Below are positions 1-17,560 of a stretch of DNA of 64,000 nt, one piece after another. The position numbers and the translations under genes were made by a program. Within the stretch, counting starts at the first letter, position 1; every line of letters starts with the position of its first letter. Source of the stretch: Pelomonas cellulosilytica (GTDB lineage: Bacteria; Pseudomonadota; Gammaproteobacteria; Burkholderiales; Burkholderiaceae_C); the NCBI RefSeq assembly GCF_021353265.1, contig NZ_JAJTWU010000009.1, positions 62,001 to 126,000 on the forward strand, written 5' to 3'. The notes below the pieces were generated by a model. The model was given only the letters and a program-made list of their open reading frames with translations. It had not been told where the DNA came from and ran no database searches.

Positions 1-221
1 ACACCGTTGAGCAGCACGGCGCCGTCGGGCATGACCTGCACGATCTTCAAGTCGTGCTTCTCGGTGCTGGGTTTGTTGCTGGGCTTGGGCATGGTGATGC
101 TCAGGCCTTGCACGCTGGCGGTGGTCATCAGGATGAACACGACGAGCAGGACGTAGGCCAGGTCGAGCATCGGGGTGACGTTGATGCTGTCGTAGGGTTT
201 GGCGTCTTGGTTGACTTGCAT
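1..221 (-). CDS. exbD: ExbD/TolR-family protein, C-terminal part missing (window edge)
   Basis: This is the N-terminal 73 residues of an ExbD/TolR-type stator protein; the gene runs off the left edge of the window. A short cytoplasmic leader is followed by the family signature NVTPMLDLAYVLLVVFI, a single transmembrane helix whose Asp is the conserved proton-relay residue. The periplasmic domain begins after about residue 40. ExbD works with ExbB to convert proton motive force into motion of a TonB- or TolA-like partner. It is the last visible gene of a run TpsB, TpsA, ExbB, ExbD, ExbD, and its first 25 or so residues closely match the ExbD at 350-763, so the two are tandem paralogs. The ATG at 221 has GGAG about 13 bases upstream. 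A TonB-like gene would be expected beyond the edge, but it cannot be seen here. Confidence 0.88.
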   Translation of the reverse strand, partial: MQVNQDAKPYDSINVTPMLDLAYVLLVVFILMTTASVQGLSITMPKPSNKPSTEKHDLKIVQVMPDGAVLLNG

Positions 222-349
222 TGGTCAGACGCTCCGATTTGTTTGGTTGTGCGCTGCTGCGGCTTGACGCGACACGGGGGTGCCGGGGCGAACTCCGGGC
301 ATGGGCTTCGCCATCAAGACAAAGCAACTAGCAACAGCGGAACACGTGT

Positions 350-763
350 TCATTCCGCCACCACCCGCTTCGTCACCAACCCGATTTCGGTGATGTCCAA
401 TTTCTTGGCCACCTCCAGCACCTGCATTACCTTCTCGTACTGCGCCGCCGCATCCGCCTTCAGCACCACCGGCAGCGACGGGTTCGCCGACTTGTACTGG
501 GCCAGCGTCGACTGCAGCTGCGTCATGTCCACCGGATAGGCGTCCAGGTAGACGCCGCCGTCCGCGGTGATCGTGATCGCGCGCGTCTGAGGCTTGGCGA
601 GGTTGTTGGCCGCCAGCGTCTCGGGCGACTTCACCTTGACGCCCTGGACCGACGCCGTCGTCAGGATGATGAAGACGACCAGCAGCACGTATGCCAGGTC
701 CAGCATCGGCGTGACGTTGATGTCGTCGTAGGGCTGGTTGTCGCTCTTGACGTCACCGGCCAT
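350..763 (-). CDS. exbD: ExbD/TolR-family proton-channel subunit
   Basis: This is a complete 137-residue ExbD-family protein. A hydrophilic cytoplasmic leader of about 15 residues precedes one transmembrane helix containing NVTPMLDLAYVLLVVFII, with the conserved Asp of the family. The rest is a periplasmic domain ending in VTKRVVAE, with the usual beta-alpha-beta pattern and full family length. It is expected to form the ExbB-ExbD inner-membrane motor with the ExbB-like protein 26 bases upstream. The ATG at 763 is preceded by a good GGGAG ribosome site. A second ExbD follows after 128 bases. Paired ExbDs behind one ExbB are known from specialised Ton systems, and the setting behind a TpsA gene suggests a role in that pathway rather than in general iron uptake; that role is inferred. 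Confidence 0.93.
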   Translation of the reverse strand: MAGDVKSDNQPYDDINVTPMLDLAYVLLVVFIILTTASVQGVKVKSPETLAANNLAKPQTRAITITADGGVYLDAYPVDMTQLQSTLAQYKSANPSLPVVLKADAAAQYEKVMQVLEVAKKLDITEIGLVTKRVVAE

Positions 764-789
764 AGCGGTCTCCCGAGGTCATCCTGGGT

Positions 790-2478
790 TCAGTGCGAGC
801 CGTACAGCTCGGCCACGCGAGTGATGAACTCGTCGATGAAGATCTGCATGTCCGACGTCGCGTTCTTAATCTGCGCCGCCAGGTAGTTGTAGCCAAACAG
901 CGCCGGAATCGCGACGCCCAGGCCCGCCACCGTCGCCAGCAGCGCTGCGGCGATGCCCGGGGCGATGGCGTTGACGTTCACGTCGCCCGCGGCGGCAATC
1001 GCGGCGAATGTGATCATCACGCCCACGACCGTGCCCAGCAGGCCCAAGAACGGGCCGCCCGAGATGGCGATGGTCAGCAGCACCATGCCCGAGTTGAGCT
1101 GCGCGTTCTCGCGCACGTAGTCGGCATCGACCGAGGCCTTCACGGCGTCTAGCGACGCGCCGGACAGCGGCTTGGCCCCCGCCTCGCCCACCTTGCGCTT
1201 GGCCAGCTCGCGGACGCCGGCCTGGTAGAGGCGGTAGATCGGCGACTCCGGGTGCGGTGCGTGTGTCTCCAGCTTCAGCAGTTCCTCATTCGCCTCGCGG
1301 AAGCGCAGCACGAAGCTGCGGTTCGCCCGCGCCACCTTGCTGACCAGCACGCCCTTGCTGACCATGACCCACGCCGCGATCGCGAACATCACGCCCAGGA
1401 TGACGATGACGACCCACGCGTCCACCGTCAGGTTCTTGACGAGGATGCCCATGTAGCCGTGGCTCTCGCCGCCCTCGGCGCTGGCGCCGTCCTTGGCCTC
1501 GCGGGCCGAGGCAACGAGCTTGCTCTCCGCGCCCTGCGCACCGGCGGCGATGGCCATCCAGTCGGCGCTGCGCAGCGCGGCCGCCACCTGCACCTCGTCC
1601 ATCAGCCCTTTGGTGCCTTCACCCAGGCGCAGCGTGCTGCCCAGCGCCGGCGTGGCCGCATCGCCCTGCGCCACCTGCGCGCCGTTGACGAACAGCGTCG
1701 CCTTGCCCAGGCCCAGGCGCAGCGCGACCTGCGTCCAGCGCGCCACGGGCACGTCGCCGCCACTCACCGCGGCCTTGTCGGCGCGGGCGACGAGCTTGCC
1801 GTCGTTCACACTCAGCGTCAGGCCGCCCCAGCTCACCAGCGTGGCGTGCTGCACGTCGTCGAGCTTGACCCACAGGCTCACCGTCAGCTGGTTGCCGGCG
1901 TCTACCACCGGCTTGTCGGACAGCGCGTACGTGATCGCTTCGCCGCTCAGCCGGGCGCTCGCCGCGAGCAGACCGTTGGGCTCGGTCACGAGCGGCCCCT
2001 GCGGCTTGACGGCGCCCAGCTGGTCCGCGCCGGCGGGCTTGTCGCTGAAGTGCAGCGCGATGACCGTCGCCGGGTCGAAGCCGCTGTCATTGCCCTCGGC
2101 CGGCGCCTTCGCATTGCCGCCGTAGACGTAGAAGACGTTCTTGTCGCTGCCCGGCAGCACGCTGGGCAGCTGCACCCACAGCACGGCCAGCTCGTTGACG
2201 CTGTCGAAGCGCTCGATGCTGAACTTCAGCGGCGTCTTGTCGTCGCCAGCCACCACGCGCAGGTCGCTGCCGTCCTCCTTGGCGGCGGTGAAGTCGAAGT
2301 TGCCGCTGTGCAGGCGCACGGCCACTGCTACGCCGCTGGCCGCTTCCTTCGTCTCCAGCCCCTGGGCGGAGGTGTTCAACGTGATCTTGGCGCGCTCGGT
2401 CCAGTCGGCGTTCCACCACGCGTTGGCGGTGGCGGGCAGCAGGGCGGCGAGCGAGAGGGCGATGAGTGCTTTGCGCAT
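790..2478 (-). CDS. exbB: ExbB/TolQ/MotA-family proton channel fused to N-terminal DUF2341 and LamG-like domains
   Basis: The product has 562 residues, more than twice a normal ExbB. Residues 1-20 are a Sec signal peptide ending ANA. Residues of about 45-130 fit DUF2341 (features such as FYVYGGNAKAP), and about 175-310 fit a LamG/concanavalin-A-like fold with LWVKLDD and ATLFVNG strands. A transmembrane helix near 350-370 is followed by a cytoplasmic stretch, and the C-terminal third is the MotA/TolQ/ExbB domain with GPFLGLLGTVVGVM and a final helix. The sugar-binding-like domains should therefore lie in the periplasm on a proton-channel base. The gene starts 16 bases after the TpsA stop and precedes two ExbD genes, so it is read as the motor of a TpsA-linked Ton-like system. 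DUF2341-ExbB fusions are known, but I know of no established function for them. Confidence 0.9.
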   Translation of the reverse strand: MRKALIALSLAALLPATANAWWNADWTERAKITLNTSAQGLETKEAASGVAVAVRLHSGNFDFTAAKEDGSDLRVVAGDDKTPLKFSIERFDSVNELAVLWVQLPSVLPGSDKNVFYVYGGNAKAPAEGNDSGFDPATVIALHFSDKPAGADQLGAVKPQGPLVTEPNGLLAASARLSGEAITYALSDKPVVDAGNQLTVSLWVKLDDVQHATLVSWGGLTLSVNDGKLVARADKAAVSGGDVPVARWTQVALRLGLGKATLFVNGAQVAQGDAATPALGSTLRLGEGTKGLMDEVQVAAALRSADWMAIAAGAQGAESKLVASAREAKDGASAEGGESHGYMGILVKNLTVDAWVVIVILGVMFAIAAWVMVSKGVLVSKVARANRSFVLRFREANEELLKLETHAPHPESPIYRLYQAGVRELAKRKVGEAGAKPLSGASLDAVKASVDADYVRENAQLNSGMVLLTIAISGGPFLGLLGTVVGVMITFAAIAAAGDVNVNAIAPGIAAALLATVAGLGVAIPALFGYNYLAAQIKNATSDMQIFIDEFITRVAELYGSH

Positions 2479-2494
2479 GGTTGTCTTTCTTCAA

Positions 2495-5400
2495 TCACGA
2501 GCTGCCGAAGCCGAGGAACTCCAGTAGCAGGTTGCGGCGCCGGCGACGGCGCTCGTCCTTGTCCTTGTCGGTGTCTGCCGCCGCAGCGGCCTGGGCCGCG
2601 CCCGTGGGCGTGGACGGCACGGTGATCGGCACCGACAGCGCGACCTCCGACGTCGCCCCCGCTCGCGCGCCTGACACCTGGATGTCGTTCGCATTGACCA
2701 GCCGCTCCGCGCCGAGGAACGCATTGCCCTTGGAGCGGATGCCCGCCTCGCCGGCATTGATCTCGCCGGTCGGCGCGTACAGGTCCAGGTCGTTGCCGGC
2801 CGACAGCACGGCGATGCCCGAGCCGCTGAACGAGCCTGACGTGTCGAACACCAGGTTGCCGGCGCTGTCCAGCCGCAGCACGGGCGCCGGCGCGCCGGTC
2901 ACTGTCTTCGCGCCGCGGCCGGCGTCGATGTTGCCGGCCGACGACCACATCAGCAGGTTGCCCTGGCCGATCGTGAAGACGCGCGACTGGTTCACGTCGA
3001 AGTTGCCGGCGACGACGGCGGACACGTCGCCACCGTTGACGGTCACGATGCCCAGCTCCGTCGGTGCCTTGTTGCCGGCTGTCACCTCGCCGGCATTGAC
3101 GCCGCCGCCCGGGTTGAGCAGCGTGATGTCGGCGCTCTGTAGCGTCTTGATTTGGCTGGTAGGCATGCGCACCTGTGCGACCGGCCGTGCCGCGGCGCCG
3201 CCCAGCGGGAACAGCAGGTTGACCGCCTGGTAGCCACGCGCATAGGCCGCCCAGCGCTCGTCGCCGTCCAGCACGGCCGCGGCGCGGCCGGCGCTGCGCA
3301 GCTCACCCATCAATACACGGTTGAGCCACGGGATGCGCCGCTCCAGCGGCAGGGCCTCGAAGCGGCGCAGCGTGTCGGCTGCGTCCGTCGGTCGTTGGCC
3401 GCCCATCAGTGTCACGTAGTCGGCCAGCTTGGCAACGTCGGCCGACGCGGCCAGCTGCGCCAGCGCTGTGCTGCGCGCCGCCAGCGTCTGCTGCGCCAGG
3501 CCGTTCATCAGTACGCGGCTGACCAACAGCGACTGCTGTGCCGCACTCAGCGTTGCGGCCTGCCCCAGCGCCGCCTCGTCGCTCAGGGCCGCCCAGGCCG
3601 GCTGCAGCAGGTTCGTCTGCTTCGCGGCCTCCGCGGCCACGGCCGGGTCGTCTACCGGCTTGCCCAGCAGCGCGGCGATGCGGGCTCGCTGGTCGCCGGC
3701 TTCGGCGCGCGCCGGCTGCGCACGCACCTGCTCGGCCGCCCACCGGTCCACGGTCGCTGCGCCGAAGCGCTGTCGTAGCAGGTCCAGCTGCTGGTCCGGC
3801 GAGGCCAGATCGAATGCCGCGGCGGAGCCGCTGCCGCCGAGCAGCACCCAGGCCTGGCCCAGCTTGCCGGTCAGGCCCGAGGCGCCCAGTACCTGGAATC
3901 CCGCGGCGCTCGCACGGGCGTAGTCATCGCCGTCGGCGCTCATGCCCGCGACGACGGTGATGCGCGCGCCTTGCTGCGGCAGCAGTGTGCTGTTGGACAG
4001 GTTGCCGCGCGCCACGATGCCCGTGCTGGTTCCGAGATCGATGTCCCGGCCGGAGAGCACCATCACGTCGCCCGGCCCGGCTAACTCCAGGCCCACGCCC
4101 GACGTGAAGCGCACGTCGCGCGCCGCCTGCAGCAGCGTCAGCTCGCTGGGGGCGTTGTCGGCGGCTGGCTGGTGCTGCACCTGCACGTTGGCCAGGCGCA
4201 CGTCGCGGCCGGCTGCAGCTGACACCGGTCGGGCCGACACGCTGTCCGACAACGTCACGTCGTCGCCCGACGACAGCAGCAGTGCCGGGCCGCGCTTGCT
4301 GGTGTCCAGCGTGGCCTGGCCGAGCGCATTGCGTGTGGCGCGCTGCGCATCGGTCAGCACGGCACCGTTGGCTTGCGTCGTGTCCACCAGGCTATTCAGT
4401 GTGGTGGCGGCCGGTGCCTGGGGCTCGCCCAGCGCCAGCACCTGCAAGTGGCCGACGCTGACCGCGTCGCGCCCGGCGATCCAGGTGCGCGCCTGTAGCG
4501 GGTCGGCGGCCGTGCTCCATTGCCATAGGTTGTCGGCGTTCACCGACCCCTGCGGCGCGAGCAGGCGCACGTCCACCGGCACGACCTGGCCCGGACGCGT
4601 CTCGCCACCTCCGCCCACCTCCAGTGGCTGGCCGCTGCCGAGGTAGCTTGCCGTGCCGGCGGCGCTCTGCACAAAGAGCTGCGCGTGCGCATCCAGCAGC
4701 GGTAGGGCCAGCCCCTCGCCGAGCGCGCCGGTGTTGGCGCGTGATGGCAGCGTCAGCGCGAAGTTGCGGGCGCTGGCCAGCGTGGCGTCGCCGCCGGCCT
4801 GCACGCGCAGCGCGCCGTCCTGGTAAATCAGCTGCAGGCCCGGATCGGTTTTCGTGTCGGCATCTGTCTGCTGACGTACGCTGCCGCCGGCGGACACGTC
4901 GATGCCGCGCGAGGCCAGCAACTGGCCGCTGACGACGTCGCGTCCGGCCCGTACCGCGACGCTGCCGCCGCCGAACTGCTGCAGGCCACGCGGCAGGTCG
5001 CTGCTGGCCGTGCTGCTCGCGTCAGCCAGGAAGCCCGAGCTCGCGGCAGCCGCGTGCACCTGCACCGCGTCGCGGCCGGCCTGCACCTGCACCGAGCCGC
5101 CGCCGAACGTGGCCACACCCTGCGAGAACAGGTCGGTGCGGGCGAACCAGGCAGTCGTCTCGTCCAGCGCGCCGCGGGCCCGCCACAACCAGCCGGTGGC
5201 ATAGAGCTGCTGGCTCGTGCTGGCGCGACCCACGACGTCGCGGCCGGCCGTCAGCCGGATGGCCGCACCGCGTTGGCTGAACGGCAGCAAGCCGGAGGCG
5301 TCCAGCGCCGTACCGAGACTCTCCAGCAGCGAGGTGTAGGGAGTCGTGGGCAGCGGGTCCGGCGTGTCGGGTGCCGGCGTCGGGCTCGGCGTGGGGGCCG

Positions 5401-8400
5401 GCGATGGTGCGGGGCTGGGCGCCGGGGCGCCGCTGCTGCCCGGCGGAGGCGGCGGCCGCACGCCGCCGGTCGTTGGACCGTTGCCGTCAGACGGCAGATT
5501 GGCGGCGGGCACGTCGGTGCCATCGGCCGCGGTGGCTCGGGCCCGCGGCGCGTCGTTGGCCGCGGGCGTCGCCGGCTCGGCGGTCACGCTGACCGGCACC
5601 CCCAGCGTGGCGACCGTCGCGCGGTCGTCGAGCCAGCGGATGTCCTGGGCGGCGGCCAGCTCAATGCGACCCGTGCTGCTGCGCAGCTGCACCGCGGGGG
5701 CGCCGGCGTCGCCGTTGCCTAGCAATACCGAACCGGCGCTCACGGCGCCTCGCGTGGCGAGCGGGTTGGCGGCGCCGAGGTCAGCACCCGCGGCTATTCG
5801 CAAGGCGCCGGCGCGGGTCGATGTGGCGACCCACTCGCCGGCGTTGGTGGGCGATTCACGCAGGCCAGTGCTGAGGCTGGCCTGCAGTTTCACGTCGCCG
5901 GCGGCGCGCAGGGTCAGTGCGGCCTCGGCGGCGTGAGGGGCGGCGCTGCGTTGCGCGGCGCTGAGCGTCGGCAGCCGCCAGTCGGCGGACAGCAGCAGGT
6001 CCCCAGCGGCCTGGATCTCGACGCCCGGCCGCACCTGCACGACCGACGACAGCCCGGGCTGGGCAGCGACCAGGCGCGCGGCGATGACCTCAGCCGTCTG
6101 TTGGGCGTCGCCCATGAAGGCCTGGTTGTCCGCCGCGACGGTGGCCAGCGTGAGCTGCCCCGCCGGCGTCGGCGCCGGTGTTGGTGCCGGGGTCGGTGCG
6201 GCCGTTGGTGGGGCCGTTGGCGCTGGCGTCGGTGGCTCCGTGGGGGCTGGCGTGGGGGCCGGCGTAGGTGCGGCCGTGGGCGCCGCGGTGGGCGCGGATG
6301 TCGGCCCGGCGGTCGGAGCAGACGACGGCGTCGTCGGCGGGGGCGGCGGCTTGACACCGCCGGTGGTGTTGCCATTGCCGTTGGACGGCTCACTGGGCCG
6401 GGGCGTTGGCGTTGGCGCTGGCGATGGCGACAACGGCGGCGGCGGCGGCTTGGTGCCGCCGGTGCTCGGGCCATTGCCGGTCGACGGCTGCGATGGTGCC
6501 GGCCCGGTGGTCGGCGCCGGCGTGGGAGCCGGCGTCGGTGCGGGTGTCGGTGCAGGCGTTGGCGCCGCAGTGGGGGCGGGCGTGGGCGCCGTGGTCGGGC
6601 CGGCCGTCGGAGCAGCTGTGGGTGCCGAGGACGGCGTCATCGGCGGAGGCGGTGGCAAGACGCCGCCGGTGCTCGGGCCGTTGCCGGTCGACGGCTGGGA
6701 CGGTGTCGGTGCGCTTGTGGGCGCAGGCGTGGGTGCGGTGGTCGGTGCGGGTGTGGGCGCAGGCGTCGGGGCCGGTGTTGGCGCCGCAGTGGGGGCGGGC
6801 GTGGGCGCCGTGGTCGGGCCAGCCGTCGGAGCAGCTGTGGGTGCCGAGGACGGCGTCATCGGCGGAGGCGGTGGCAAGACGCCGCCGGTGCTCGGGCCGT
6901 TGCCGGTCGACGGCTGGGACGGTGTCGGTGCGGTTGTGGGCGCCGGCGTGGGTGCGGTGGTCGGTGCGGTGGTCGGTGCGGGCGTGGGCACAACCGTCGG
7001 CGCGGGTGTTGGGGCGACCGTCGGCGCCTGCGTCGGCGCGGCGGTGGGCGCGGAGGACGGGGTCAGCGGTGGAGGCGGTGGCTGCACGCCGCCGGTGCTG
7101 GGGCCATTGCCGGTCGAGGGCTGGGCGGGTGACGGGGCCGTCGTGGGTGCAGGTGTGGGCGCAGCGGTGGGCGCCGACGTTGGCGCTGCCGTGGGTGCAG
7201 CCGTCGGTGCGGCGGTTGGGGCCGAAGACGGCGTAACCGGTGCGGGGGGCGGTTGCACGCCGCCGGTGCTGGGGCCGTTGCCCGACGAGGGGTCGGTGGG
7301 GGCGGACCCCGTGCCGGTGGCGTCCAGCGCCTGGCGGGTCGGCGCGGCCGCCGCCGCCGTGGGCGAGGGCGGCTGCGTCAGCGGCGGTGGCGGAGGCTTG
7401 GTTCCGCCCGTGGTGGCGCCGTTGCCGGCCGACGGGTCGGGGTCCGTGGGTACCGGGGCAGGGCCCGGGCCAGGCGTTGGTGCGGGGCCGGTGGTGGGCG
7501 CCGGCGTCGGCGCCACGGTGGGCGCGGCTGTCGGTGCGGTTGTCGGCGTTGGAGCGCTGTACTCGTCCAGCAACTGCGTCACGTCGCCGTAGACCTTGAC
7601 GGCCTCGATGTCGACGCTGCCCACCTGTTCCAGGCGCGTCTGCAGCGCCTCGATCTTCACGGCCTGGCCGTCGCGCAGCGCACGCAGCGACAGCGCGCCA
7701 CCGTCGAGGTCCATGCTGCCGCCTTGCAGCCGCAGCACACCGGCGCTGCTGTTCAGCGCGATGCGGCTGGGATCAACGGCGCTGCCGCTGGCGCCTCGGG
7801 CTACGAGCTGGGCGCCATAGGCGATGACCACGTCCTGGCCCGCGTTGAGCTGGATCTGGCCGCCTCCGGTCGGTGACGCCAGCGCGACGAGACGGCCGGC
7901 AACGGTCAGGCTGCCTTGGTCGCTGTCGAGTTCCAGCGAGCGTGCCGCCAGGCTGGCGGTGGCGGGCAGCAGCTGGTGGCCAGCGCGGTTGCGCACGGCG
8001 ATCTGCTGCTCAAACGCCCGGTTGCCGGCATTTGCGATGGCGGAGGACAGCGCGCCGAGGTCGACGGCCGCCTGGCTGTCGAGCGTCAGGCTGGCCGGTG
8101 TGACGGCCGTGGCGGAGGCCGCCGCGCGCAGCTGGCCGTCCAGTGTCAGTGCGCCACCCGGGGCGTTCAGGCTCAGCCGGCCGGCGTCGCCGTCGCCGGC
8201 GGCGGAAACGTCCAGCTGCGCCGCGCGGCCGAGCACGAGGCTGCCGCTGTGGCTGGTGGCCGTCAGGCTGCCGGCGGTGACATCGGCACGCACACTCTGG
8301 CTGCCACTGGCGATGGTGTCGCTGCGGCCGGCCACGCTGAGCCGGCCCGCGTCGATACGCAGGTCGCCATCGGCCGCCAGCGTCAACTGGCCGGCGGGCA

Positions 8401-11400
8401 AGTCAATGTCCGTCGCGATGGCGATCGTCTGCGCCGTCAGCGCGAGCTGGGCCGCGGTACCGCGCGTCGGCGTGGGGCTGTCGCTCATGGCGCTCGCCAG
8501 CTGCAGGGCACCCTGCACGTTCCACTGGCTGCTTGCCGGCGCCGTGCCCTCGGCGCTGGCGGTGACGGCGCGTGTGGCCGCCGTCACGCCGCCCGTGGCC
8601 GTGATCTGGCTGTCGCCAGCCAGCAGCACGCCGCCGGGTGCGGCGAGCGTGGTCTGAGCGGCCTGCCAGGCCTGGCCGCCAGGGCCGATCTGCAGCGTGC
8701 CGGCGCCGGCGAGCGTGATGCCGCCCGCGCCGCCCGCGTTCGCCACCGTGCGGCCGGTTGTGTTCGTCAGCACCAGGCGCTGGGCCTGGATGTGTGCCTG
8801 GTCGTCGGCTGCCGCGGCGCGCAGGGCCGGCGTGTCCAGCGTCAGGCGGGCGAGATCGGGCTGGCCCACGTCCACGCCACCGACGAGGTCGATGCCGTCG
8901 TAGCTGCGCAGCAGCAGGTCCTGCGCCTGGCCGGCCTGGGCGAGCAGTTGCGGCCCGAGCAGCAGGCTGTTGCCCGCCAACGGCTGCGTGCCGCCGAGCT
9001 GCAGGCGTGGCACGCCCAGGCCCAGTGCCGTGGCGTTCAGGCGGGCCGAGTCGGCGAGCATGGCGCTGGCTGTGGCGTCGAGCTGCACGCGACCACCCGT
9101 GGCCTGCAGCGCGGCGCCGTCATGCAACACGAGGCTGCCGGCCGCGAGCGTCGCGCCCTGGCGCAGCAACTGGCTGTCGGTCGTGGCGCTGAGCAGCAGC
9201 GCGGCGCCATCGCCGTTGACGCGCCAGTCGGTGGCGGTGGTCTTGCCGGGCTTGGCCTGCAGCTGGGCCCCGGTTCCGATGTCCAGCATCCGGCGTGCGG
9301 CCAGCACGAGGTTGGGCGCTGCCAGCACCTGGCCGGGCTCGGCGTCGACGGCCAGCGTCTGCGCCCGCACGTCGAGCGAGCCGGGCTGCTGCAGGTCACG
9401 CGGGACGGCGCCCAGTACCAGGTTGTCGACACCCAGGTTGCCGAGCTGCCGCAGGTCCAGCTGCAGCGCGCCAGGCGTGCCGCCAGTGCCGGCGCCGACG
9501 TGGATGTCCGCCGCACCGAAGTAGGCGCTGCCGCCGCGGCCCGGCTCGCCGCCGGCCGAGGTGCCGGCCGCCAGGCGCAGCGCGCCACGGATGTCGGCCT
9601 GTTGGGCTGTGACGACGAGGGCGCCGGCATCGCGGTTGAATGCCGGCGTGGCAGCGTCGTTGCGCTGCGCAAGCGCGCCGAAGAACGCGTCCGCGCCGGT
9701 CAGTCGGATCTCGCTATAGCGGCGCGCCTGCGCCGGGGTCAGGACTTGCCAGTTGCTGGTCAGCGCATCCAGCACCGCGGTGCCGGCCTGACCGAGCCTG
9801 GCTCCCACGGTCAGCGTGCCGTCGTCGCGGGGGATGGCGCGGCCCAGGCTCAGCGCGGCACCGCCGGCTGGGCGCACGAGCAGCGCACCGGGCAGCAGCG
9901 CGAAGCGGGCGGGCAGCAGCGTGTAGCTGCCCTGAAGCACGGTGCCGTCGGGCAGCGTCAGGCCTGTGCCGAAATGGATCTGTCGTCCCAGTGCCGGCAG
10001 GCCGGGCAGCGAGTTGTCCGCCGCGCCGGTGCTCTGCACGCCGGGCACGATGGCGTAGCTGCCGTCGGCGGCGCTGAAGATGTCGGTCGAGCCACCCGGG
10101 CCGGCCACGAATTGCCAGCCGAGCAGCCGCCCGCCGCCGCTGAGGTCCACCTTGGCGCCGGGCGCGATGCTGACGGTCGGGGCGTCCAGCAAGACGGCCT
10201 TGGCCGGCGCGGCGCTGGCCGTCTGGCCCGACTTGCTGCCCGGGCTGAACCAGCGCTCGCCGTTCCAGCTGCCGAACAGGAAGCTGCGGCCGTCGGCATT
10301 GACCGACGTCTCGCTGCCGTCCAGCAGCTGCACGCTCTGGCTGGCCTGAAGCGTGAGGCTGCCCTCAGGCGCGCGCAGCCGACCGCCCTGCACGATGCTG
10401 GTGGCCCGCAGCGTCAGCCGGCCTCCGGCGCTCCAGGGCAGGTCCGGCGCGGCACCGCCGGGCTGGGCGATGGTGATGCGCTGGCCGGTCGCGTCGATTG
10501 TGAAGGCGGTGTCGGTGGCGGGGAACACCTGGCGCGCGCTCAGGGTCACGTCGCCGGCCGTCGCCAAGCCTGCGCCGGTGCCGAGGTCGGCGCTGGGGCG
10601 CTGCAGCAGCAGGTCGCCGCCGCTGGCCAGGTCCAGGCGCGCGATGCCTTGCGTGGCCAGCTGGCCGCTGAGGTCCAGCCGCTCGCTCGCCTGCAGCGTC
10701 AGGCTGCCGGTGCCGGCCGTTGGCACGGCCGCGGCGCGCTGCAGGCCCTGGCCGTAGTTCAGTGCGGGCTTGGTGTTGGCCCAGCTCAGCAGAGGCGCCG
10801 ACAGCCGCGCGCCTGTCTCGCCGGTAGTCGAGGGTTTGACCGTCAGTGCTTCGCCGTCGAGCACCAGCGCGCGGTCCAGCTGCAGGTCTACACCCGACTC
10901 GATGGCGAGCCGCTCCCGCGCGCTGAGCTTGAGTTCGCTGGCACCGGAGCGTGCCAGCCATGGCGCATCGACGCGCGCCAGGACCGGCGTGTTGCGGGCG
11001 TTGCCGAGGTCGCCGGCCTTCAGCTGGGCGGTCAGTGCGCCGTCGCGAGCCGCGAGGGCCAGGTCCATCACAGGCGGTGCGGGGCCGTCCTCGGCCTGGC
11101 CGGCGCCCAGCGTGACCTGCACCTTGCCGCCGGACTGGCCTTGGCCGCCGTGCGCGTTCAGCGTGCCTTCCAGCAGCAGTTGGCCGTTGCCCTGCACATT
11201 CAGGCTGCCGGCGCCGCTGCCGACCTGCTGGCGCGTGACGAGATCACCGCTGTCCGCGCGTTCGCGCACGTCGAGCAGGCCGGTGGCGCCGCTGATGTCC
11301 AGCCTTGCGCCTTGCTGCACGACGAGGCTGGTGGCGAAGGACAGGTCAGCGCCGGCCGACGTGAGGCTGATGCTGCCGCCGCCCAGCACGCGGCCTGTCA

Positions 11401-14400
11401 GCCGGCCGTCGGTTGTGAGCTGGAGCTGCCGCAGGCCGGCCACGTCGATGCTGGCGGTGCTGCTGACCCACAGCCAGCGGGCGATGTCGGCCGTGCCCGA
11501 GCCGCTCAGCGCCAGCGACACCTTGCCGCCGGGGGCCGTGAGGCTGCCGTCCACGCGCAGCCGGTGGCGTGCGGACAGGCTCAGGCTGGCCGTGGGGTCC
11601 AGCGAGATGCTGGCGCCGGCGGCAACGGTCAGCTCGCCGCGCGGCGAGTCGGCCGCATAGCCACCGGAGGCCAGGCTCAGGTTGACCGGCTTGGGCAGTG
11701 TCAGCGTCTGCAGGCCCGGCGTGAACAGGCCGGCCGCGCTGGTGGCGCTGGGCGCGAGGCGGCTGGCTGCGTTGGGCTGCCAGAGCTGCAGCCGCGGCGC
11801 CAGCGTGGTGCCGGCGTCGACGACGAGGCTCTCGCGGCCGTTGAACGCGAAGCTCTGGAAGCCGCCGCGGTCCAGGAAGTCGGCGGCCAAGTGCAGCGTG
11901 CCCGGCGCGTCGGCGGCACCGTCGGCGTTGCCGAAGCGCAGCGCCGGCGCCGTGACGCTGAGGCTGCCGCCCTGCGTCAGCGAGTAGCCGCGAAGTTCCG
12001 CAGCGAGCTTCAACGTGCTGGCCGGGCCGGGAATGACGGCATCCGGGCCGGCGGACAAGGTCAGGCTGCCCGCCGCGCCGCCCGTGATGGAAGCCGCGCC
12101 GGGCGCCACGAGGCCACCACCGGACACATCCAGGACACCGCCGCGGCCGATGGTCAGGTCGCCGCCCGCCTGTAGGCTGAGCTGGCCGCCCGTGATGGCT
12201 GCGCTGGGCGACGACTGCGCGAGCAGCGGGTCGAGCGCCGCATTGACCCAGGCGCCGGCCACGTCGAGATGCGCCTGTTCCGCCACCGTCACGTCGCCCC
12301 GCAGGCTGCGCAGCGTGACGTTACCACCGGCCAGGTGCACCGAGCCGGCCACGTCGACGGTGCCGCGCTCCGATTGCAGGCGCAGCGTGCCGAGTGCCGG
12401 CAGTTCGAGGTCGCCGCCGAGCGTCACGTCGCCCACTGCCGTGATGCTGACGGCGCCAAAGCCCGACGACCGCAGCGTGGCGAGCGACAGGCCCGAGGCG
12501 ATGCCGTCGAGCGAGGCGGGATTGGCGTCGGCGCCGAGGCGCGGCGCGGCGTCGCTGGCGAGCCCGAAGCGGCCCAGCACCGGGCCCTGGTAGTTGCTGC
12601 TGCCGAAGTCGCCGGCGTGCACCAGCGCGCCGACGACGAGCCGGCTCGCCGCGGCGAGCGCGTCCTGCCCCAGCCGCTGGCGCTGGCCTTGCACGACGGC
12701 GCCGCTCAAGGCGCCGTCCAGCACGACGGTGGGCGCGACGAGCGTGAGGCTGCCGCCGGCCTGACCGTCCACGTAGCCGCTCTCCAGCCGCGCGGGCGCG
12801 ACGCTGCCGTAGGTGACCATCGGCCCCCAGCGGTCGTAGCGCGCCTTGCTCGTGCCGGCGTTGCTGATGGCCGTGTAGAGCAGGTCCTTGGGCGCGTTGT
12901 TCAGCGTGTAAGCGGTGCCGGTGCTGCTGAACAGCTGCGTCGGCGAGACGAGGGCGTCGGTGTAGGTCACCTTGCCGCCGTCGACGCTGATGCGCGAGCC
13001 GGCCGCGGCCAGCACTGCCTCACCAGCGATGACGCGCAGGTTGCCGCCGCTGGCCAGCCGTTCGCTGGCGCTGCGCTGCAGGCCGGTGCGGTAGTTGGCC
13101 AGGTCGCCGAGGATGGGCGACGCCTGGCGGATGTCCAGCGTGACCTTGTTGCGGTACAGCAGGCCGTCCTTCTGGAGCGGCGCATCTTTCAGATCGTTGC
13201 TGCCGAGCAGTTCGGTCGTCACGAAGTTGCGCGCGGCGCTGACGGTGGTGTCGGTCGTGCCGGCCAGGTCGATGCGCGCGTTGCCGCCGATGACGACGCG
13301 GCCGGATATGGCGCTGAGGGGCTGGGCGGTCAGCAGGCCGTCGCGGAAGTCGGGCGTGTCGAGCGCGCGGAACTCGGCCTGCGCGCCGGGCGCCGTCACC
13401 TGGCCCTGCACGTCGATGAGTGCGCCGGCGAACTGCAGGCGTGAGCGGGTGAAGCTGGCGTTGTCGTCGCTGGTCAGCGGCTTGCCGTCGGCGCCCTTGT
13501 CGTCGGGCGTGATCGTCGTGACGCTGCCGGCGGCGAGCGTCAGCGTGCCGCTGGCCGTGGCGCGCTTGAAGGAGGGGTCGCTGGTCGCCTTGCCGGCTTC
13601 GGCATCGCCCTGTGCCAGCAGCAGGATGGAGCCGTTCTGCGAGACGCTGGTGGTCGCACTGATGCGACCAGCCTGGTTGACGGCCAGGCCCACCAGCGTG
13701 GCGTTGCCGCGTGGCACGTCGATCGTGCCGTGGTGGTCGACGGACCCCGCGCCGGTAGCCATGTCGGCACGCCCGACTTCCACGAGCAGGCCGCGCAGCG
13801 CAGGCACGTTGGGGTTGGTCTCCGACGCGTACAGCGGCTCGGCCGTCGGCAGCTTGTAGAACACCTCGGCACCCGCGCCGAGCACCACCTGGCCGCCCGG
13901 GCTGGCCAGAGTGCCGTCGTTCTCCACGCGCTTGGCGTAGAGCTGGATGCGGCCGCCTTCGCCGGTGCGGATCTGGGCGCCGGGCTCGACGCGGATGAAG
14001 TTCCTGGCGTCGACGTATTCGGCGGCTGCGCCGTCATAGCGCAGCGCCGGATTGCCGCCGGTGATGTTGGCGACGAAGCCGTTGGCGTAGTCGGTGTTGC
14101 TCGGGGCCAGCGTGGTGGCCATCAGAGCGCCCACGTCCACGCGTGAGTCCTTGCCGAACAGGATGCCGTTGCGGTTGTAGAGCAGGATCTCGCCGCCGTT
14201 GGTGGCCTTGAGCTGGCCGAAGATGAGGCTGGGGCTGACGCTGCCGATGCGGTTCAGCGCGCTGGAGCCCGGCTGCGCCATGTCGAAGGTGACCGAGGCG
14301 TCGGCGCTGATGTCGAAGCTCTGCCAGGCGTAGATCGCACGCTGGCTGTTCTGCTGGATGACCATGGCGCGGCCATCGAGGCTGATGGCCGGCAGCGCCT

Positions 14401-14584
14401 GTGTCTCGGGCTTGTTGCCGTAGACGCGCCAGCCTGCGGCCGGCACGGGCAGCGTCTTCGGCGGCGGTGGAGGTGGCGCGGTGACGCGCGACTGCGCGAG
14501 CGTCACCAGCGGCAGGCTCGCGGCCAGTGCGGCCACGAGCGGCTTGAGCAGCAGGCTGGAGGTGGGCGGGACCGTCTTGGGCAT
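2495..14584 (-). CDS. giant TpsA exoprotein, filamentous haemagglutinin family (two-partner secretion)
   Basis: The product has 4029 residues. A signal peptide ends near residue 31 (LVTLAQS). The TPS secretion domain follows at about 45-165, with the motif NRNGILFG corresponding to the NPNGI of FHA-type proteins. Then come thousands of residues of beta-helix-like repeats rich in Gly, Ala, Leu and Asp (patterns such as GGxLxLxAxxD). Two Pro-Thr tracts interrupt this body at about residues 2340-2810 and 3025-3080. The C-terminal 600 residues resemble the region annotated as DUF3739 in such proteins and end in a run of Arg followed by NLLLEFLGFGSS. It is expected to be exported by the TpsB encoded 10 bases upstream and to be surface-bound or released, probably as an adhesin. 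The ATG at 14584 fits the signal peptide. Whether it is anchored or processed by the ExbB/ExbD genes downstream is unknown. Confidence 0.92.
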   Translation of the reverse strand: MPKTVPPTSSLLLKPLVAALAASLPLVTLAQSRVTAPPPPPPKTLPVPAAGWRVYGNKPETQALPAISLDGRAMVIQQNSQRAIYAWQSFDISADASVTFDMAQPGSSALNRIGSVSPSLIFGQLKATNGGEILLYNRNGILFGKDSRVDVGALMATTLAPSNTDYANGFVANITGGNPALRYDGAAAEYVDARNFIRVEPGAQIRTGEGGRIQLYAKRVENDGTLASPGGQVVLGAGAEVFYKLPTAEPLYASETNPNVPALRGLLVEVGRADMATGAGSVDHHGTIDVPRGNATLVGLAVNQAGRISATTSVSQNGSILLLAQGDAEAGKATSDPSFKRATASGTLTLAAGSVTTITPDDKGADGKPLTSDDNASFTRSRLQFAGALIDVQGQVTAPGAQAEFRALDTPDFRDGLLTAQPLSAISGRVVIGGNARIDLAGTTDTTVSAARNFVTTELLGSNDLKDAPLQKDGLLYRNKVTLDIRQASPILGDLANYRTGLQRSASERLASGGNLRVIAGEAVLAAAGSRISVDGGKVTYTDALVSPTQLFSSTGTAYTLNNAPKDLLYTAISNAGTSKARYDRWGPMVTYGSVAPARLESGYVDGQAGGSLTLVAPTVVLDGALSGAVVQGQRQRLGQDALAAASRLVVGALVHAGDFGSSNYQGPVLGRFGLASDAAPRLGADANPASLDGIASGLSLATLRSSGFGAVSITAVGDVTLGGDLELPALGTLRLQSERGTVDVAGSVHLAGGNVTLRSLRGDVTVAEQAHLDVAGAWVNAALDPLLAQSSPSAAITGGQLSLQAGGDLTIGRGGVLDVSGGGLVAPGAASITGGAAGSLTLSAGPDAVIPGPASTLKLAAELRGYSLTQGGSLSVTAPALRFGNADGAADAPGTLHLAADFLDRGGFQSFAFNGRESLVVDAGTTLAPRLQLWQPNAASRLAPSATSAAGLFTPGLQTLTLPKPVNLSLASGGYAADSPRGELTVAAGASISLDPTASLSLSARHRLRVDGSLTAPGGKVSLALSGSGTADIARWLWVSSTASIDVAGLRQLQLTTDGRLTGRVLGGGSISLTSAGADLSFATSLVVQQGARLDISGATGLLDVRERADSGDLVTRQQVGSGAGSLNVQGNGQLLLEGTLNAHGGQGQSGGKVQVTLGAGQAEDGPAPPVMDLALAARDGALTAQLKAGDLGNARNTPVLARVDAPWLARSGASELKLSARERLAIESGVDLQLDRALVLDGEALTVKPSTTGETGARLSAPLLSWANTKPALNYGQGLQRAAAVPTAGTGSLTLQASERLDLSGQLATQGIARLDLASGGDLLLQRPSADLGTGAGLATAGDVTLSARQVFPATDTAFTIDATGQRITIAQPGGAAPDLPWSAGGRLTLRATSIVQGGRLRAPEGSLTLQASQSVQLLDGSETSVNADGRSFLFGSWNGERWFSPGSKSGQTASAAPAKAVLLDAPTVSIAPGAKVDLSGGGRLLGWQFVAGPGGSTDIFSAADGSYAIVPGVQSTGAADNSLPGLPALGRQIHFGTGLTLPDGTVLQGSYTLLPARFALLPGALLVRPAGGAALSLGRAIPRDDGTLTVGARLGQAGTAVLDALTSNWQVLTPAQARRYSEIRLTGADAFFGALAQRNDAATPAFNRDAGALVVTAQQADIRGALRLAAGTSAGGEPGRGGSAYFGAADIHVGAGTGGTPGALQLDLRQLGNLGVDNLVLGAVPRDLQQPGSLDVRAQTLAVDAEPGQVLAAPNLVLAARRMLDIGTGAQLQAKPGKTTATDWRVNGDGAALLLSATTDSQLLRQGATLAAGSLVLHDGAALQATGGRVQLDATASAMLADSARLNATALGLGVPRLQLGGTQPLAGNSLLLGPQLLAQAGQAQDLLLRSYDGIDLVGGVDVGQPDLARLTLDTPALRAAAADDQAHIQAQRLVLTNTTGRTVANAGGAGGITLAGAGTLQIGPGGQAWQAAQTTLAAPGGVLLAGDSQITATGGVTAATRAVTASAEGTAPASSQWNVQGALQLASAMSDSPTPTRGTAAQLALTAQTIAIATDIDLPAGQLTLAADGDLRIDAGRLSVAGRSDTIASGSQSVRADVTAGSLTATSHSGSLVLGRAAQLDVSAAGDGDAGRLSLNAPGGALTLDGQLRAAASATAVTPASLTLDSQAAVDLGALSSAIANAGNRAFEQQIAVRNRAGHQLLPATASLAARSLELDSDQGSLTVAGRLVALASPTGGGQIQLNAGQDVVIAYGAQLVARGASGSAVDPSRIALNSSAGVLRLQGGSMDLDGGALSLRALRDGQAVKIEALQTRLEQVGSVDIEAVKVYGDVTQLLDEYSAPTPTTAPTAAPTVAPTPAPTTGPAPTPGPGPAPVPTDPDPSAGNGATTGGTKPPPPPLTQPPSPTAAAAAPTRQALDATGTGSAPTDPSSGNGPSTGGVQPPPAPVTPSSAPTAAPTAAPTAAPTSAPTAAPTPAPTTAPSPAQPSTGNGPSTGGVQPPPPPLTPSSAPTAAPTQAPTVAPTPAPTVVPTPAPTTAPTTAPTPAPTTAPTPSQPSTGNGPSTGGVLPPPPPMTPSSAPTAAPTAGPTTAPTPAPTAAPTPAPTPAPTPAPTTAPTPAPTSAPTPSQPSTGNGPSTGGVLPPPPPMTPSSAPTAAPTAGPTTAPTPAPTAAPTPAPTPAPTPAPTPAPTTGPAPSQPSTGNGPSTGGTKPPPPPLSPSPAPTPTPRPSEPSNGNGNTTGGVKPPPPPTTPSSAPTAGPTSAPTAAPTAAPTPAPTPAPTEPPTPAPTAPPTAAPTPAPTPAPTPAGQLTLATVAADNQAFMGDAQQTAEVIAARLVAAQPGLSSVVQVRPGVEIQAAGDLLLSADWRLPTLSAAQRSAAPHAAEAALTLRAAGDVKLQASLSTGLRESPTNAGEWVATSTRAGALRIAAGADLGAANPLATRGAVSAGSVLLGNGDAGAPAVQLRSSTGRIELAAAQDIRWLDDRATVATLGVPVSVTAEPATPAANDAPRARATAADGTDVPAANLPSDGNGPTTGGVRPPPPPGSSGAPAPSPAPSPAPTPSPTPAPDTPDPLPTTPYTSLLESLGTALDASGLLPFSQRGAAIRLTAGRDVVGRASTSQQLYATGWLWRARGALDETTAWFARTDLFSQGVATFGGGSVQVQAGRDAVQVHAAAASSGFLADASSTASSDLPRGLQQFGGGSVAVRAGRDVVSGQLLASRGIDVSAGGSVRQQTDADTKTDPGLQLIYQDGALRVQAGGDATLASARNFALTLPSRANTGALGEGLALPLLDAHAQLFVQSAAGTASYLGSGQPLEVGGGGETRPGQVVPVDVRLLAPQGSVNADNLWQWSTAADPLQARTWIAGRDAVSVGHLQVLALGEPQAPAATTLNSLVDTTQANGAVLTDAQRATRNALGQATLDTSKRGPALLLSSGDDVTLSDSVSARPVSAAAGRDVRLANVQVQHQPAADNAPSELTLLQAARDVRFTSGVGLELAGPGDVMVLSGRDIDLGTSTGIVARGNLSNSTLLPQQGARITVVAGMSADGDDYARASAAGFQVLGASGLTGKLGQAWVLLGGSGSAAAFDLASPDQQLDLLRQRFGAATVDRWAAEQVRAQPARAEAGDQRARIAALLGKPVDDPAVAAEAAKQTNLLQPAWAALSDEAALGQAATLSAAQQSLLVSRVLMNGLAQQTLAARSTALAQLAASADVAKLADYVTLMGGQRPTDAADTLRRFEALPLERRIPWLNRVLMGELRSAGRAAAVLDGDERWAAYARGYQAVNLLFPLGGAAARPVAQVRMPTSQIKTLQSADITLLNPGGGVNAGEVTAGNKAPTELGIVTVNGGDVSAVVAGNFDVNQSRVFTIGQGNLLMWSSAGNIDAGRGAKTVTGAPAPVLRLDSAGNLVFDTSGSFSGSGIAVLSAGNDLDLYAPTGEINAGEAGIRSKGNAFLGAERLVNANDIQVSGARAGATSEVALSVPITVPSTPTGAAQAAAAADTDKDKDERRRRRRNLLLEFLGFGSS
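5340..5515 (-). repeat. short second Pro-rich tract in TpsA
   Basis: The tract encodes a GNG...TGG...PPPPP module followed by a run of PAPSPAPTP-type dipeptides, then DTPDPLPTTP. It repeats the composition of the larger tract about 650 bases away on the other side of a beta-helical segment, so TpsA has two separate flexible linkers. Confidence 0.8.
6160..7565 (-). repeat. Pro-Thr repeat tract of TpsA with recurring GNG-TGG-PPPPP modules
   Basis: About 470 codons encode APT/TPAPT-type repeats punctuated by seven copies of a module of the form PSxGNGxxTGG, two residues, three to five prolines, then usually TPSSAPT. An eighth copy lies in the tract at 5340-5515. The reading frame is kept throughout. 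Such a sequence should be extended and disordered and is a plausible O-glycosylation or cell-wall-spanning stalk; this is inference from composition. Confidence 0.9.
6559..6976 (-). repeat. near-identical 219-bp direct repeat inside the TpsA Pro-Thr tract
   Basis: Bases 6559-6757 are almost identical to 6778-6976, giving a period of 219 bp (73 codons). Differences are single bases, such as ggccggcc against ggccagcc. The in-frame period means gain or loss of a unit would change TpsA length without a frameshift. Confidence 0.85.
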
Positions 14585-14594
14585 GGAGCGGCTC

Positions 14595-16247
14595 TCAGAA
14601 ACGCAGGGCGGCGCGGATGTGCACGCGCTCCGAAGGCAGACTGCGGCCGACGACGTCGCGGTGGCGTCGCGCCCAATCGACCGACAGGCTCAGGCCTGGC
14701 TGCAGTCCCAGCCGCAGTCCGAGGCCCGTGCCCATCAACGTGCTGCGGTGGGGCTGGCCGGGTTCGGGCTCCAGCAGCGCAACGCGGGCCATGTCACCGA
14801 AGCCGAAGACGACGATCTCCGTGAACGGCGGCAGGTTGGCGCCGTCGAAGGCCGCCAGCAGCGCCGGCGCCAGGTTGCGGCTGCGCAGCTCCAGCGATGC
14901 CAGTACGCCGTAGTCGGCCGACACCGCCGCCTCGGGGTAGCCGCGTACGGAGTCGGCACCGCCGACCGCGAATTGCTCGGCGCTGACCAGCGGCTCGCTG
15001 GCGAGCTGGCCGGCCAGGTGCAGCGCCCATTCGGTCGGTCCGACGCGGCGGCTGGCGCGCCAGTCGAGCTTGACGGTCGTGAAGCCGCCATCCGCGCCGC
15101 GCCGCTTGCAGGCGAACTGGTCTGCCACGCCGAAGCTGCCGTCCGCGAGCTGGCAGTCGCTGCGCGTTTGCCGCCACACCGGCCGCAGGCCGAAGGCCGC
15201 GTTGACGGCCAGCTGCTGGCTGCCGCCGGACTCACCCCACCAGCTGCCGTTGTAGCCCAGCTGCAGCGGCGCATAACGCAGCGGTGCGCCGATAGTGCCG
15301 GCGCTGGTCAGCACGTCCTCCTTCAGGTCCTTCACATCGACGCCCACCGACAGGCCGTGCGCGGCGTTGTCACCCAAGCGGTTCATGCCGTAGCGCAGAC
15401 CCAGCGTCGTGCCCTTACCCAGCACGCGGGTACCGCCCAGGCTGTCGATGTCGCTGCTGGAGTTGATGGCACTGAAGCTCAGCGAATCGCCACCGTCGAG
15501 CGGCACCAGGTATCCCAGCACGACGACGCGCGACTGGCTGGGGCGCATCGGTGCGGTGAGTGCAGTCAGCGACAGCGAATGGCCGCGCTGGAAGAGGTTG
15601 TCGTAGTGCAGGTTGGCGGCCGTGCGCAGGGGCTCGGTGCCGTCTGCAGCGGCATTGCTGATCTCCAAGCTGCCGCCTAGCGGCAGCTTGTCGGTGACCT
15701 TCAGCTCGGCCTCCACCGTGCCGGGCTCGCGCCCCGGGCGCAGCACCGGCTGGACACGCCGTTCGGGCGCCTGGCTGAGTGCGGCGATCTGCTGCTGCAC
15801 GACGTTGAAGTTGGGCACCTTGCCCTCGGCCAGCTCAGCCGCGACGGCGCGTATCTGCCCTTGGTCGTAATAGCGCGAGCCCGTCACGTAGAGCTTCTCG
15901 ACGCGCCCCTCCAGCACCGCCAGGCGCACAACGCCGCCATCGATGCGCTGCTCCGGCACGTCGACGAACACGGTCAGGTAGCCAGCGCCCTGGTACGCCT
16001 TCTCCAGTGCCGCGCGGGCCCCCTCGATGGCGGCCATGTCGCGGCCCTCGCCCATGAAGGGCATGACGGCCGCCTCGACCTGCAGTGGCGTCAGCCGGGT
16101 GTTGCCTTCGATCTCGAACTCGAGGATGTCGAAGCGCAGCGTGGCTTGCGCGAAGGCCGGCAGCCCACTGACGCCGAGCGCCAGGGCCATCGCAAACAGG
16201 AAAAACCAGCGCGCCCCGCACGGGGCGCGCGTCGAGCCGGCGTCCAT
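14595..16247 (-). CDS. TpsB outer-membrane transporter, ShlB/FhaC/HecB family
   Basis: The product is 550 residues when started at the ATG at 16247, which gives a signal peptide (FFLFAMALALGV...PAFAQA); an upstream in-frame start at 16397 would add 50 Arg/Pro-rich residues and bury the signal. Two POTRA domains span about residues 40-200 (FEIEGNTRLTPLQVEAAV and the following PNFNVVQQQIAAL region). The remainder is a 16-strand Omp85-type barrel containing VRGYPE, the conserved loop-6 motif, and ending in Phe (RAALRF), as outer-membrane barrels do. It recognises and exports the TpsA partner, whose ATG lies 10 bases after this stop codon. Its length is typical of the family. Adjacency makes the pairing secure. 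Confidence 0.95.
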   Translation of the reverse strand: MDAGSTRAPCGARWFFLFAMALALGVSGLPAFAQATLRFDILEFEIEGNTRLTPLQVEAAVMPFMGEGRDMAAIEGARAALEKAYQGAGYLTVFVDVPEQRIDGGVVRLAVLEGRVEKLYVTGSRYYDQGQIRAVAAELAEGKVPNFNVVQQQIAALSQAPERRVQPVLRPGREPGTVEAELKVTDKLPLGGSLEISNAAADGTEPLRTAANLHYDNLFQRGHSLSLTALTAPMRPSQSRVVVLGYLVPLDGGDSLSFSAINSSSDIDSLGGTRVLGKGTTLGLRYGMNRLGDNAAHGLSVGVDVKDLKEDVLTSAGTIGAPLRYAPLQLGYNGSWWGESGGSQQLAVNAAFGLRPVWRQTRSDCQLADGSFGVADQFACKRRGADGGFTTVKLDWRASRRVGPTEWALHLAGQLASEPLVSAEQFAVGGADSVRGYPEAAVSADYGVLASLELRSRNLAPALLAAFDGANLPPFTEIVVFGFGDMARVALLEPEPGQPHRSTLMGTGLGLRLGLQPGLSLSVDWARRHRDVVGRSLPSERVHIRAALRF

Positions 16248-17428: not shown

Positions 17429-17560
17429 GGCGGGCTCGATGGAGAGTCTGGCGTTGGCCTGATGCAGGGCGGGCACTTCGGCGGGTGGCCGTGAGTGCTA
17501 GTTGATGGCGTCGATGGCGCCATGAAGCAGCACACGTGATGGGTGATTCGCGACGAGTGA

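What the first reader, a model, noticed from the sequence alone, without database searches (positions are those of the whole stretch)
1..16247. A two-partner secretion pair in one run with a dedicated ExbB-ExbD-ExbD motor
Seen: tpsB, tpsA, exbB, exbD, exbD lie on one strand with gaps of 10, 16, 26 and 128 bases and no terminator between. Known: classical TPS needs no energy input at the outer membrane beyond folding, and ExbB/ExbD power TonB-like proteins. Inferred: a proton-driven step, such as stretching, releasing, anchoring or retracting the 4029-residue TpsA, may be built into this pathway. I know of no characterised mechanism for this pairing.
Basis: partly seen in the sequence, partly recalled or inferred. 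Interest (0 to 1): 0.78.

Follow-up and report, generated by a model that had tools for sequence, protein, structure and literature searches.

The report
Giant surface protein with dedicated motor
A huge bacterial surface protein is encoded together with its exporter, a proton-powered motor, a TonB arm and a porin, and its tail ends in a conserved tag that the arm may grip, which would make this an energy-driven version of a secretion route thought to need no energy.

Summary
In detail: tpsB, tpsA, exbB, exbD, exbD lie on one strand with the stated gaps, and the run continues past the window into tonB, a Porin_5 porin and a coiled-coil gene. It is not chance. In 369 class-level genomes DUF2341-ExbB (22), DUF3739-TpsA (23 over cut-off) and full-length Porin_5 (24) fall in the same 24 genomes, while TPS domains occur in 122; in 249 phylum-level genomes ExbB and DUF3739 occur in the same six. 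The pairing is already in print for Pseudomonas PUMA3 (pdtA/pdtB-exbB2-exbD2-tonB4), where the motor is called uncharacterised. New here: DUF3739-TpsAs end in a conserved tail motif (about TVEVLGFG) that 16 usable control TpsAs lack. It resembles a TonB box in register but weakly, and co-varies with the cluster's TonB C-terminal domain more than with the neighbouring TpsA domain. Best reading: the tail stays in the periplasm and the dedicated TonB grips it, so the motor pulls on a tethered fibre; a PstS-like neighbour hints at phosphate. Grip, retention and pull are inferred, and the window's own tail is a poor TonB-box match. Double ExbD is not general (27 of 80 loci).

The parts
14595..16247 (-). 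tpsB: outer-membrane TPS transporter, POTRA_2 plus ShlB barrel
   Evidence: CdiB is the best PDB sequence match
2495..14584 (-). tpsA: 4029-aa exoprotein
13616..14398 (-). TPS secretion domain of TpsA (aa 63-323)
   Evidence: PF05860, E 1.2e-21
3212..3928 (-). helical domain of TpsA before DUF3739 (aa about 3553-3791)
   Evidence: AlphaFold model of the last 490 residues
2651..2962 (-). DUF3739 (aa 3875-3978)
   Evidence: PF12545, E 2.5e-29
2498..2635 (-). tail of TpsA, predicted disordered
   Evidence: pLDDT under 50 over most of it
2504..2533 (-). conserved tail motif, here NLLLEFLGFG (aa 4018-4027)
790..2478 (-). exbB: DUF2341, lectin-like LamG domain, MotA_ExbB channel
350..763 (-). exbD, first copy
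   Evidence: PF02472
1..221 (-). exbD, second copy, start only; it continues outside the window, followed by tonB, porin and coiled coil (L001 15221-11832)
17605..19056 (-). secreted PstS-like neighbour, associated but not proven part of the module
   Evidence: 13 related ORFs in the loci searched; family profile matches phosphate-binding proteins

Best explanation
This is a two-partner secretion module with its own Ton/Tol-type motor. TpsB exports TpsA, but the last part of TpsA (helical domain, DUF3739, flexible tail) is not fully released and the tail stays in the periplasm. [quoted passage not shown] The TolQ-like ExbB and the ExbD use the proton gradient to pull on that tail through TonB, so the giant fibre is tethered to, and tugged from, the inner membrane. 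The porin and the coiled-coil protein complete the outer-membrane and periplasmic side. The most likely use is capture of a nutrient, perhaps phosphate, at the surface. Shown here: gene set, order, conservation, tail motif. Supported only indirectly: tail-TonB contact. Inferred: periplasmic retention, pulling, phosphate role.
For: Same 24 of 369 genomes hold ExbB, DUF3739-TpsA and full-length porin, apart from three single misses in draft genomes; same six of 249; TPS gene in 75 of 80 loci and in 59 of 59 with at least 9 kb on both sides. Tail motif: 53 of 56 tails score above every one of 1120 shuffles, and 14 of 16 further tails carry it. 0 of 16 usable control TpsAs. The genome's TonB-box matrix puts its best hit on the motif in register in 25 of 56 tails, about 1 in 102 expected per tail. 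Motif distance follows TonB C-terminal distance after all other parts are held constant (0.34, 0 of 500). Three TpsAs of G551 share an identical 12-residue motif while one ExbB was found there. The tail is predicted disordered.
Against: No tail scores as high as any receptor box (best 11.9 against 14.7 for the lowest, self-scored box), and the window's own motif ranks 13th in its tail. The motif also co-varies with the porin (0.22, 0 of 500), and shared ancestry is not fully removed. Two tails (L166, L167) are weak. Second motor copies exist without adjoining TPS or porin (L013, L018, L019). No call tests where the tail lies. The review seen in passages says type V export can run without external energy. 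In P. aeruginosa, tpsA, tpsB or tonB-homologue insertion mutants did not change the induced virulence in zebrafish.
Confidence: 0.45

Rival explanations
1. The motor serves the Porin_5 porin or another outer-membrane partner, and TpsA is only co-inherited as part of one surface programme.
For: The porin is as tightly linked as TpsA and the tail motif also co-varies with it. A conserved segment before the porin barrel was matched by a simple pattern in 59 of 92 porin ORFs.
Against: The TpsA tail motif co-varies more with TonB than with the porin, and a porin alone would not explain a conserved TpsA tail.
Confidence: 0.17
2. Export drive: TonB works on TpsB or on the incoming chain and supplies energy for moving a 4000-residue protein, then lets go.
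For: TpsA is very large, and motor and pair are co-inherited.
Against: Classical TPS works without it (review passages), and large TpsAs occur in this class without such a motor (open frames of several thousand residues).
Confidence: 0.13
3. Adhesion motor: the same tether is used for retraction or surface movement, as in gliding motors, and not for nutrients.
For: TolQ/TolR-like motor, TonB-like arm, outer-membrane barrel and long fibre. The TonB-like protein has a weak GltJ match, E 0.0014, far below its cut-off.
Against: The PstS-like neighbour and published phosphate control point elsewhere; no further gliding parts were looked for.
Confidence: 0.13
4. The tail motif is an anchoring or sorting strand for another partner and does not bind TonB.
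For: Absolute TonB-box scores are low and the window's own motif matches poorly.
Against: In-register best hits in 25 of 56 tails and co-variation with the TonB C-terminal domain; motif seen in TpsAs of the class that comes with this motor and not in the 16 usable controls.
Confidence: 0.1
5. Neighbouring genes without a shared job.
For: In some genomes the motor and tpsA lie apart (L002, L004, L006).
Against: Co-occurrence holds even where the genes are apart.
Confidence: 0.02

Closest known systems
Pseudomonas aeruginosa PUMA3 (VreI) regulon: pdtA, phdA, pdtB, exbB2, exbD2, tonB4, PA0696 (putative porin), PA0697
   Same: TPS pair beside ExbB, ExbD, TonB and a putative porin; association reported in further bacteria (PMC2729926 and PMC7035377, passages). 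A Klebsiella plasmid with the same gene series has DUF3739, DUF2341-ExbB, Porin_5 and the tail motif.
   Different: The window has tpsB before tpsA, a second exbD, and no FecR-type regulator on its contig. The P. aeruginosa sequences themselves were not available to me.
Classical two-partner secretion (type Vb), such as FhaB/FhaC or CdiA/CdiB
   Same: TPS domain, POTRA and ShlB barrel.
   Different: Dedicated motor, TonB and porin, DUF3739, conserved tail motif.
TonB-dependent transporters with ExbB-ExbD-TonB
   Same: Motor and TonB-type C-terminal domain; box-like motif.
   Different: No plug domain reported for TpsB or TpsA by Pfam; the motif is at the C-terminus of the exported protein.
Myxococcus Agl/Glt gliding motor (recalled, beyond the passages)
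   Same: TolQ-like subunit with TolR-like partners, TonB-like arm, outer-membrane barrels, surface adhesin.
   Different: Works-like comparison only; homology of the outer parts was not tested.

Membership tests
Two-partner secretion (type Vb) | TPS secretion domain at the N-terminus of the exported protein | tested here: met
   PF05860, aa 63-323
Two-partner secretion (type Vb) | Partner with POTRA domain and ShlB/FhaC barrel | tested here: met
   PF08479 and PF03865
Two-partner secretion (type Vb) | Export without energy input at the outer membrane | not testable with these tools
   needs mutants
Ton/Tol-type motor | MotA/TolQ/ExbB channel fold | tested here: met
   PF01618; Foldseek to solved ExbB and TolQ chains
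Ton/Tol-type motor | Ion-path residues (Thr in the channel helices, Asp in the ExbD helix; roles recalled) | tested here: met
   T483 and T516 invariant in both ExbB alignments; Asp pattern in 127 of 130 ExbD ORFs, one of the three exceptions still has the Asp and two look like wrong frames
Ton/Tol-type motor | TonB/TolA-type C-terminal domain | tested here: met
   PF13103 over cut-off
PUMA3-type pdt/exbB2-exbD2-tonB4 module | TPS pair, ExbB, ExbD, TonB and Porin_5 together | tested here: met
   synteny with L173
PUMA3-type pdt/exbB2-exbD2-tonB4 module | FecR-type (VreR-like) regulator at the locus | tested here: not met
   Six FecR matches in the genome, none on contig C29; so the module is related but not filed as PUMA3-regulated
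TonB-dependent transporter | Plug domain in the outer-membrane partner | tested here: not met
   No Plug domain reported for TpsB or TpsA or the porin
TonB-dependent transporter | TonB box | tested here: inconclusive
   In-register resemblance in 25 of 56 tails, low scores
Agl/Glt gliding machinery | Homologous outer-membrane and adhesin parts | not tested
   only a weak GltJ match of the TonB-like protein was seen

The most novel reading that the evidence does not exclude
A two-partner-secreted giant fibre is a TonB client: its C-terminal tail remains in the periplasm and a dedicated proton motor pulls on it through TonB. In some clusters, at least one beside a VreA-like sensor (STN plus TonB-like domain), the tail carries a second similar motif, and the sensor may read the same tail, coupling the state of the fibre to gene control.
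Probability: 0.4. Interest if true: 0.88.

Novelty: new variant of a known kind. Interest (0 to 1): 0.7.

Why it matters
Type Vb secretion is the textbook case of outer-membrane export without an energy source. A TpsA class that comes, in the genomes sampled, with its own proton motor and a grip-like tail would be a TPS substrate under active mechanical control. It would give a role to the DUF2341-ExbB, DUF3739 and Porin_5 families and to the exbB2-exbD2-tonB4 motor of Pseudomonas, still called uncharacterised in 2020. It turns an open question into one peptide-binding test and one tail deletion.

Tried and rejected
Chance or hitch-hiking: disfavoured by co-occurrence in 369 and 249 genomes. 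Motor tracking TPS in general: not so, TPS domains occur in 122 of 369 genomes, of which 20 are among the 22 ExbB genomes. Double ExbD as general design: no, 27 of 80 (recounted with start-free frames). PDB fold match for the TpsA C-terminal part: none at E 0.001 or better. Pfam for the 483-aa neighbour: none; its family profile found phosphate-binding structures. The genome's own TonB-box matrix as proof of a TonB box: insufficient. Clostridial neurotoxin chains in the Foldseek list were read as a shared lectin-like fold only and not followed.

Dropped rows and caveats. One search gave 24 genomes at E 0.001; G223 is below the family cut-off and its fetched tail (L162) has no motif. One search gave 54 genomes; the 24 counted have E of 1e-139 or better, the next best is 1.8e-34. 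G104 lacks DUF3739, G101 and G200 lack ExbB; all three are drafts of 220 to 340 contigs, with the hit at a contig end (G104, G101) or 64% completeness (G200). One search scored at most three candidates per genome; 64 C-termini gave 56 after near-duplicates were removed; one of the 56 (the second L063 frame) looks like a wrong frame; of 20 controls, three run off their contig (L143, L145, L146) and one has a masked tail (L132), leaving 16; best score 11.0 (L151). L152 was mis-picked by the script and its tail was read. Some further tails come from close relatives of the first set (L155, L157); 28 of 30 receptor N-termini used (L109, L120 were wrong frames), 21 of 28 placements taken as boxes. 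The odds of the best and novel readings were lowered slightly on weighing the weak box scores and the porin co-variation again.

Full report
What is there. The window is G000:C29:62001-126000. Past the edge (L001) the run continues with tonB, a Porin_5 porin and a coiled-coil protein. In L001 11500-19000 no sigma-70-like promoter was found and terminator-like sites are no more frequent than in shuffles. The best ExbB match among named genomes is Roseateles saccharophilus, 91% identical.

Domains. ExbB has a signal peptide (by eye), DUF2341, a LamG domain and a MotA_ExbB channel. NCBIfam places the channel nearer TolQ than ExbB and the first ExbD nearer TolR, all below curated cut-offs. The AlphaFold model (mean pLDDT 84.5) shows beta domains followed by the TolQ/ExbB helices, and Foldseek lists solved ExbB and TolQ chains. 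The genome has eight MotA_ExbB matches over cut-off and 59 plug-domain matches over cut-off, so this motor is one of several.

Is it a module? In 369 class genomes, P0001 finds DUF2341-ExbB in 22 at E 1e-40, DUF3739 is over cut-off in 23 and full-length Porin_5 (E 1e-139 or better) is in 24. All lie within the same 24 genomes; G104 lacks DUF3739, G101 and G200 lack ExbB. TPS domains occur in 122 of 369, including 20 of the 22, so the motor marks the DUF3739 class and not TPS as a whole. In 249 phylum genomes, ExbB and DUF3739 occur in the same six. Fisher values ignore relatedness. Of 80 named loci (the best matches to the query, so biased towards it), 75 hold a TPS gene, 80 ExbD, 27 two ExbDs, 77 TonB, 76 porin and 71 the coiled coil. 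All 59 with at least 9 kb on both sides hold a TPS gene, and the five without are short of that. Records include Beta-, Gamma- and Alphaproteobacteria and some labelled Verrucomicrobia.

Exceptions to adjacency. Of the 20 class loci first read, six show ExbB without an adjoining TPS gene. In L002 the genome's DUF3739 hit is on another contig; in L004 and L006 it is about 20 kb away. L013, L018 and L019 are second copies, without a porin in the stretch, in genomes with a further copy beside a porin. L015 is cut off at its contig end. In L012 and L014 the TPS genes lie on the other strand.

What is known. Llamas and others (PMC2729926, passages) and the VreI paper (PMC7035377, passages) describe pdtA, phdA, pdtB, exbB2, exbD2, tonB4 and PA0696 in P. 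aeruginosa. The first notes association of TPS, ExbBD and PA0696 homologues in other bacteria; the second calls the Ton system uncharacterised. A Klebsiella plasmid (NZ_CP084804.1) shows FhaB-type protein, ShlB, ExbB, ExbD, TonB, porin, hypothetical, YbjN, peptidylprolyl isomerase and LysR genes. The window differs in gene order, double exbD, and in having no FecR match on its contig. My searches (DUF2341 with ExbB; two-partner secretion with ExbB and TonB; DUF3739; TonB box with two-partner secretion; exbB2, tonB4, PA0696) showed no paper, in listings and in the passages opened, proposing a TonB-gripped TpsA tail. Only open-licence PMC papers were searched, and most listed papers were not opened.

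The tail. DUF3739-TpsAs end in a flexible, often Ala/Ser/Gly-rich stretch with a motif near S-h-h-T-V-E-V-L-G-F-G-D/E. A motif search on 56 non-redundant tails gave information content 17.2 against 7.8 to 8.4 for shuffled tails. With the resulting matrix 53 of the same 56 tails score above the best of 1120 shuffles. Of 16 further tails from over-cut-off hits, nine and four exceed it, L152 has it by eye, and L166 and L167 are weak (8.9, 10.7). The Klebsiella tail has it by eye. None of 16 usable control TpsAs does. In the model of the last 490 residues, a helical domain precedes strands of the DUF3739 region, and the tail is mostly below pLDDT 50.

Why TonB. A motif search on receptor N-termini of the same genome recovered TonB-box-like strings such as LERVEVTG. 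Their matrix puts its best hit on the TpsA motif, in register, in 25 of 56 tails; but no tail reaches the lowest receptor box, only 9% of tails exceed the 99% shuffle level, and the window's motif ranks 13th. Across 51 loci the motif distance follows TonB C-terminal distance (r 0.54) more than ExbB channel (0.14), ExbB N-terminal part (0.35), ExbD (0.27), DUF3739 (0.16) or porin (0.48). With all others held constant TonB keeps 0.34 (0 of 500 permutations) and porin 0.22 (0 of 500). Without the RRNLLLEF-type tails (41 loci) TonB keeps 0.25 (1 of 500) and porin 0.12 (41 of 500). This fits a contact, but ancestry is not fully removed.

One motor, several fibres. G551 has three DUF3739-TpsAs with an identical 12-residue motif and one ExbB match. 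In L063, L163-L165, L168 and L173 a second, similar motif follows (by eye except L063). A VreA-like protein (STN plus TonB_2) lies next to the L163 TpsA, and another is in L057. L173 has a DUF4880 protein upstream. No regulator was seen for L168. Llamas and others speculated that the VreA C-terminal domain might bind an outer-membrane partner; the second motif is a candidate.

Phosphate hint. The protein encoded at 17605-19056 has 13 related ORFs in the loci searched, two of them copies of one gene. Its family profile matches phosphate-binding proteins weakly, best E 6.9e-5. R276, S280 and G281 are invariant in the 11-sequence alignment; that this resembles the PstS phosphate loop is recalled. 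In P. aeruginosa the pair is induced by phosphate starvation (review passages). This is a lead only.

Verdict. A TonB-gripped TpsA tail is a new, testable proposal with indirect support.

Noticed in passing
window 17605-19056 (-) and 16331-17476 (-): Upstream of tpsB lie a secreted PstS-like protein and a PEP-CTERM protein; relatives of the first recur near tpsB in other loci.
   Followed up: partly
L013 13519-16643, L018 3406-6305, L019 13551-16395: Second copies of the DUF2341-ExbB, ExbD, TonB set without a porin in the stretch; the L019 copy sits among genes that look like type II secretion genes (by eye).
   Followed up: no
L173 (Klebsiella quasipneumoniae plasmid NZ_CP084804.1): The whole module is carried on a plasmid typed as conjugative (IncFIB).
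   Followed up: partly
L063, L163-L165, L168, L173: A second motif (QVLGAG type) follows the tail motif in these TpsAs; VreA-like STN plus TonB_2 proteins were confirmed in L163 and L057.
   Followed up: partly
window about 6158-7555 (-), TpsA aa 2344-2809: Long Pro/Thr-rich stretch with recurring TGG..PPPP units inside TpsA.
   Followed up: no
window 14595-16247 (-), N-terminus of TpsB: Only about five residues seem to lie between the signal peptide (by eye) and POTRA, so the plug helix H1 of CdiB/FhaC may be missing.
   Followed up: partly
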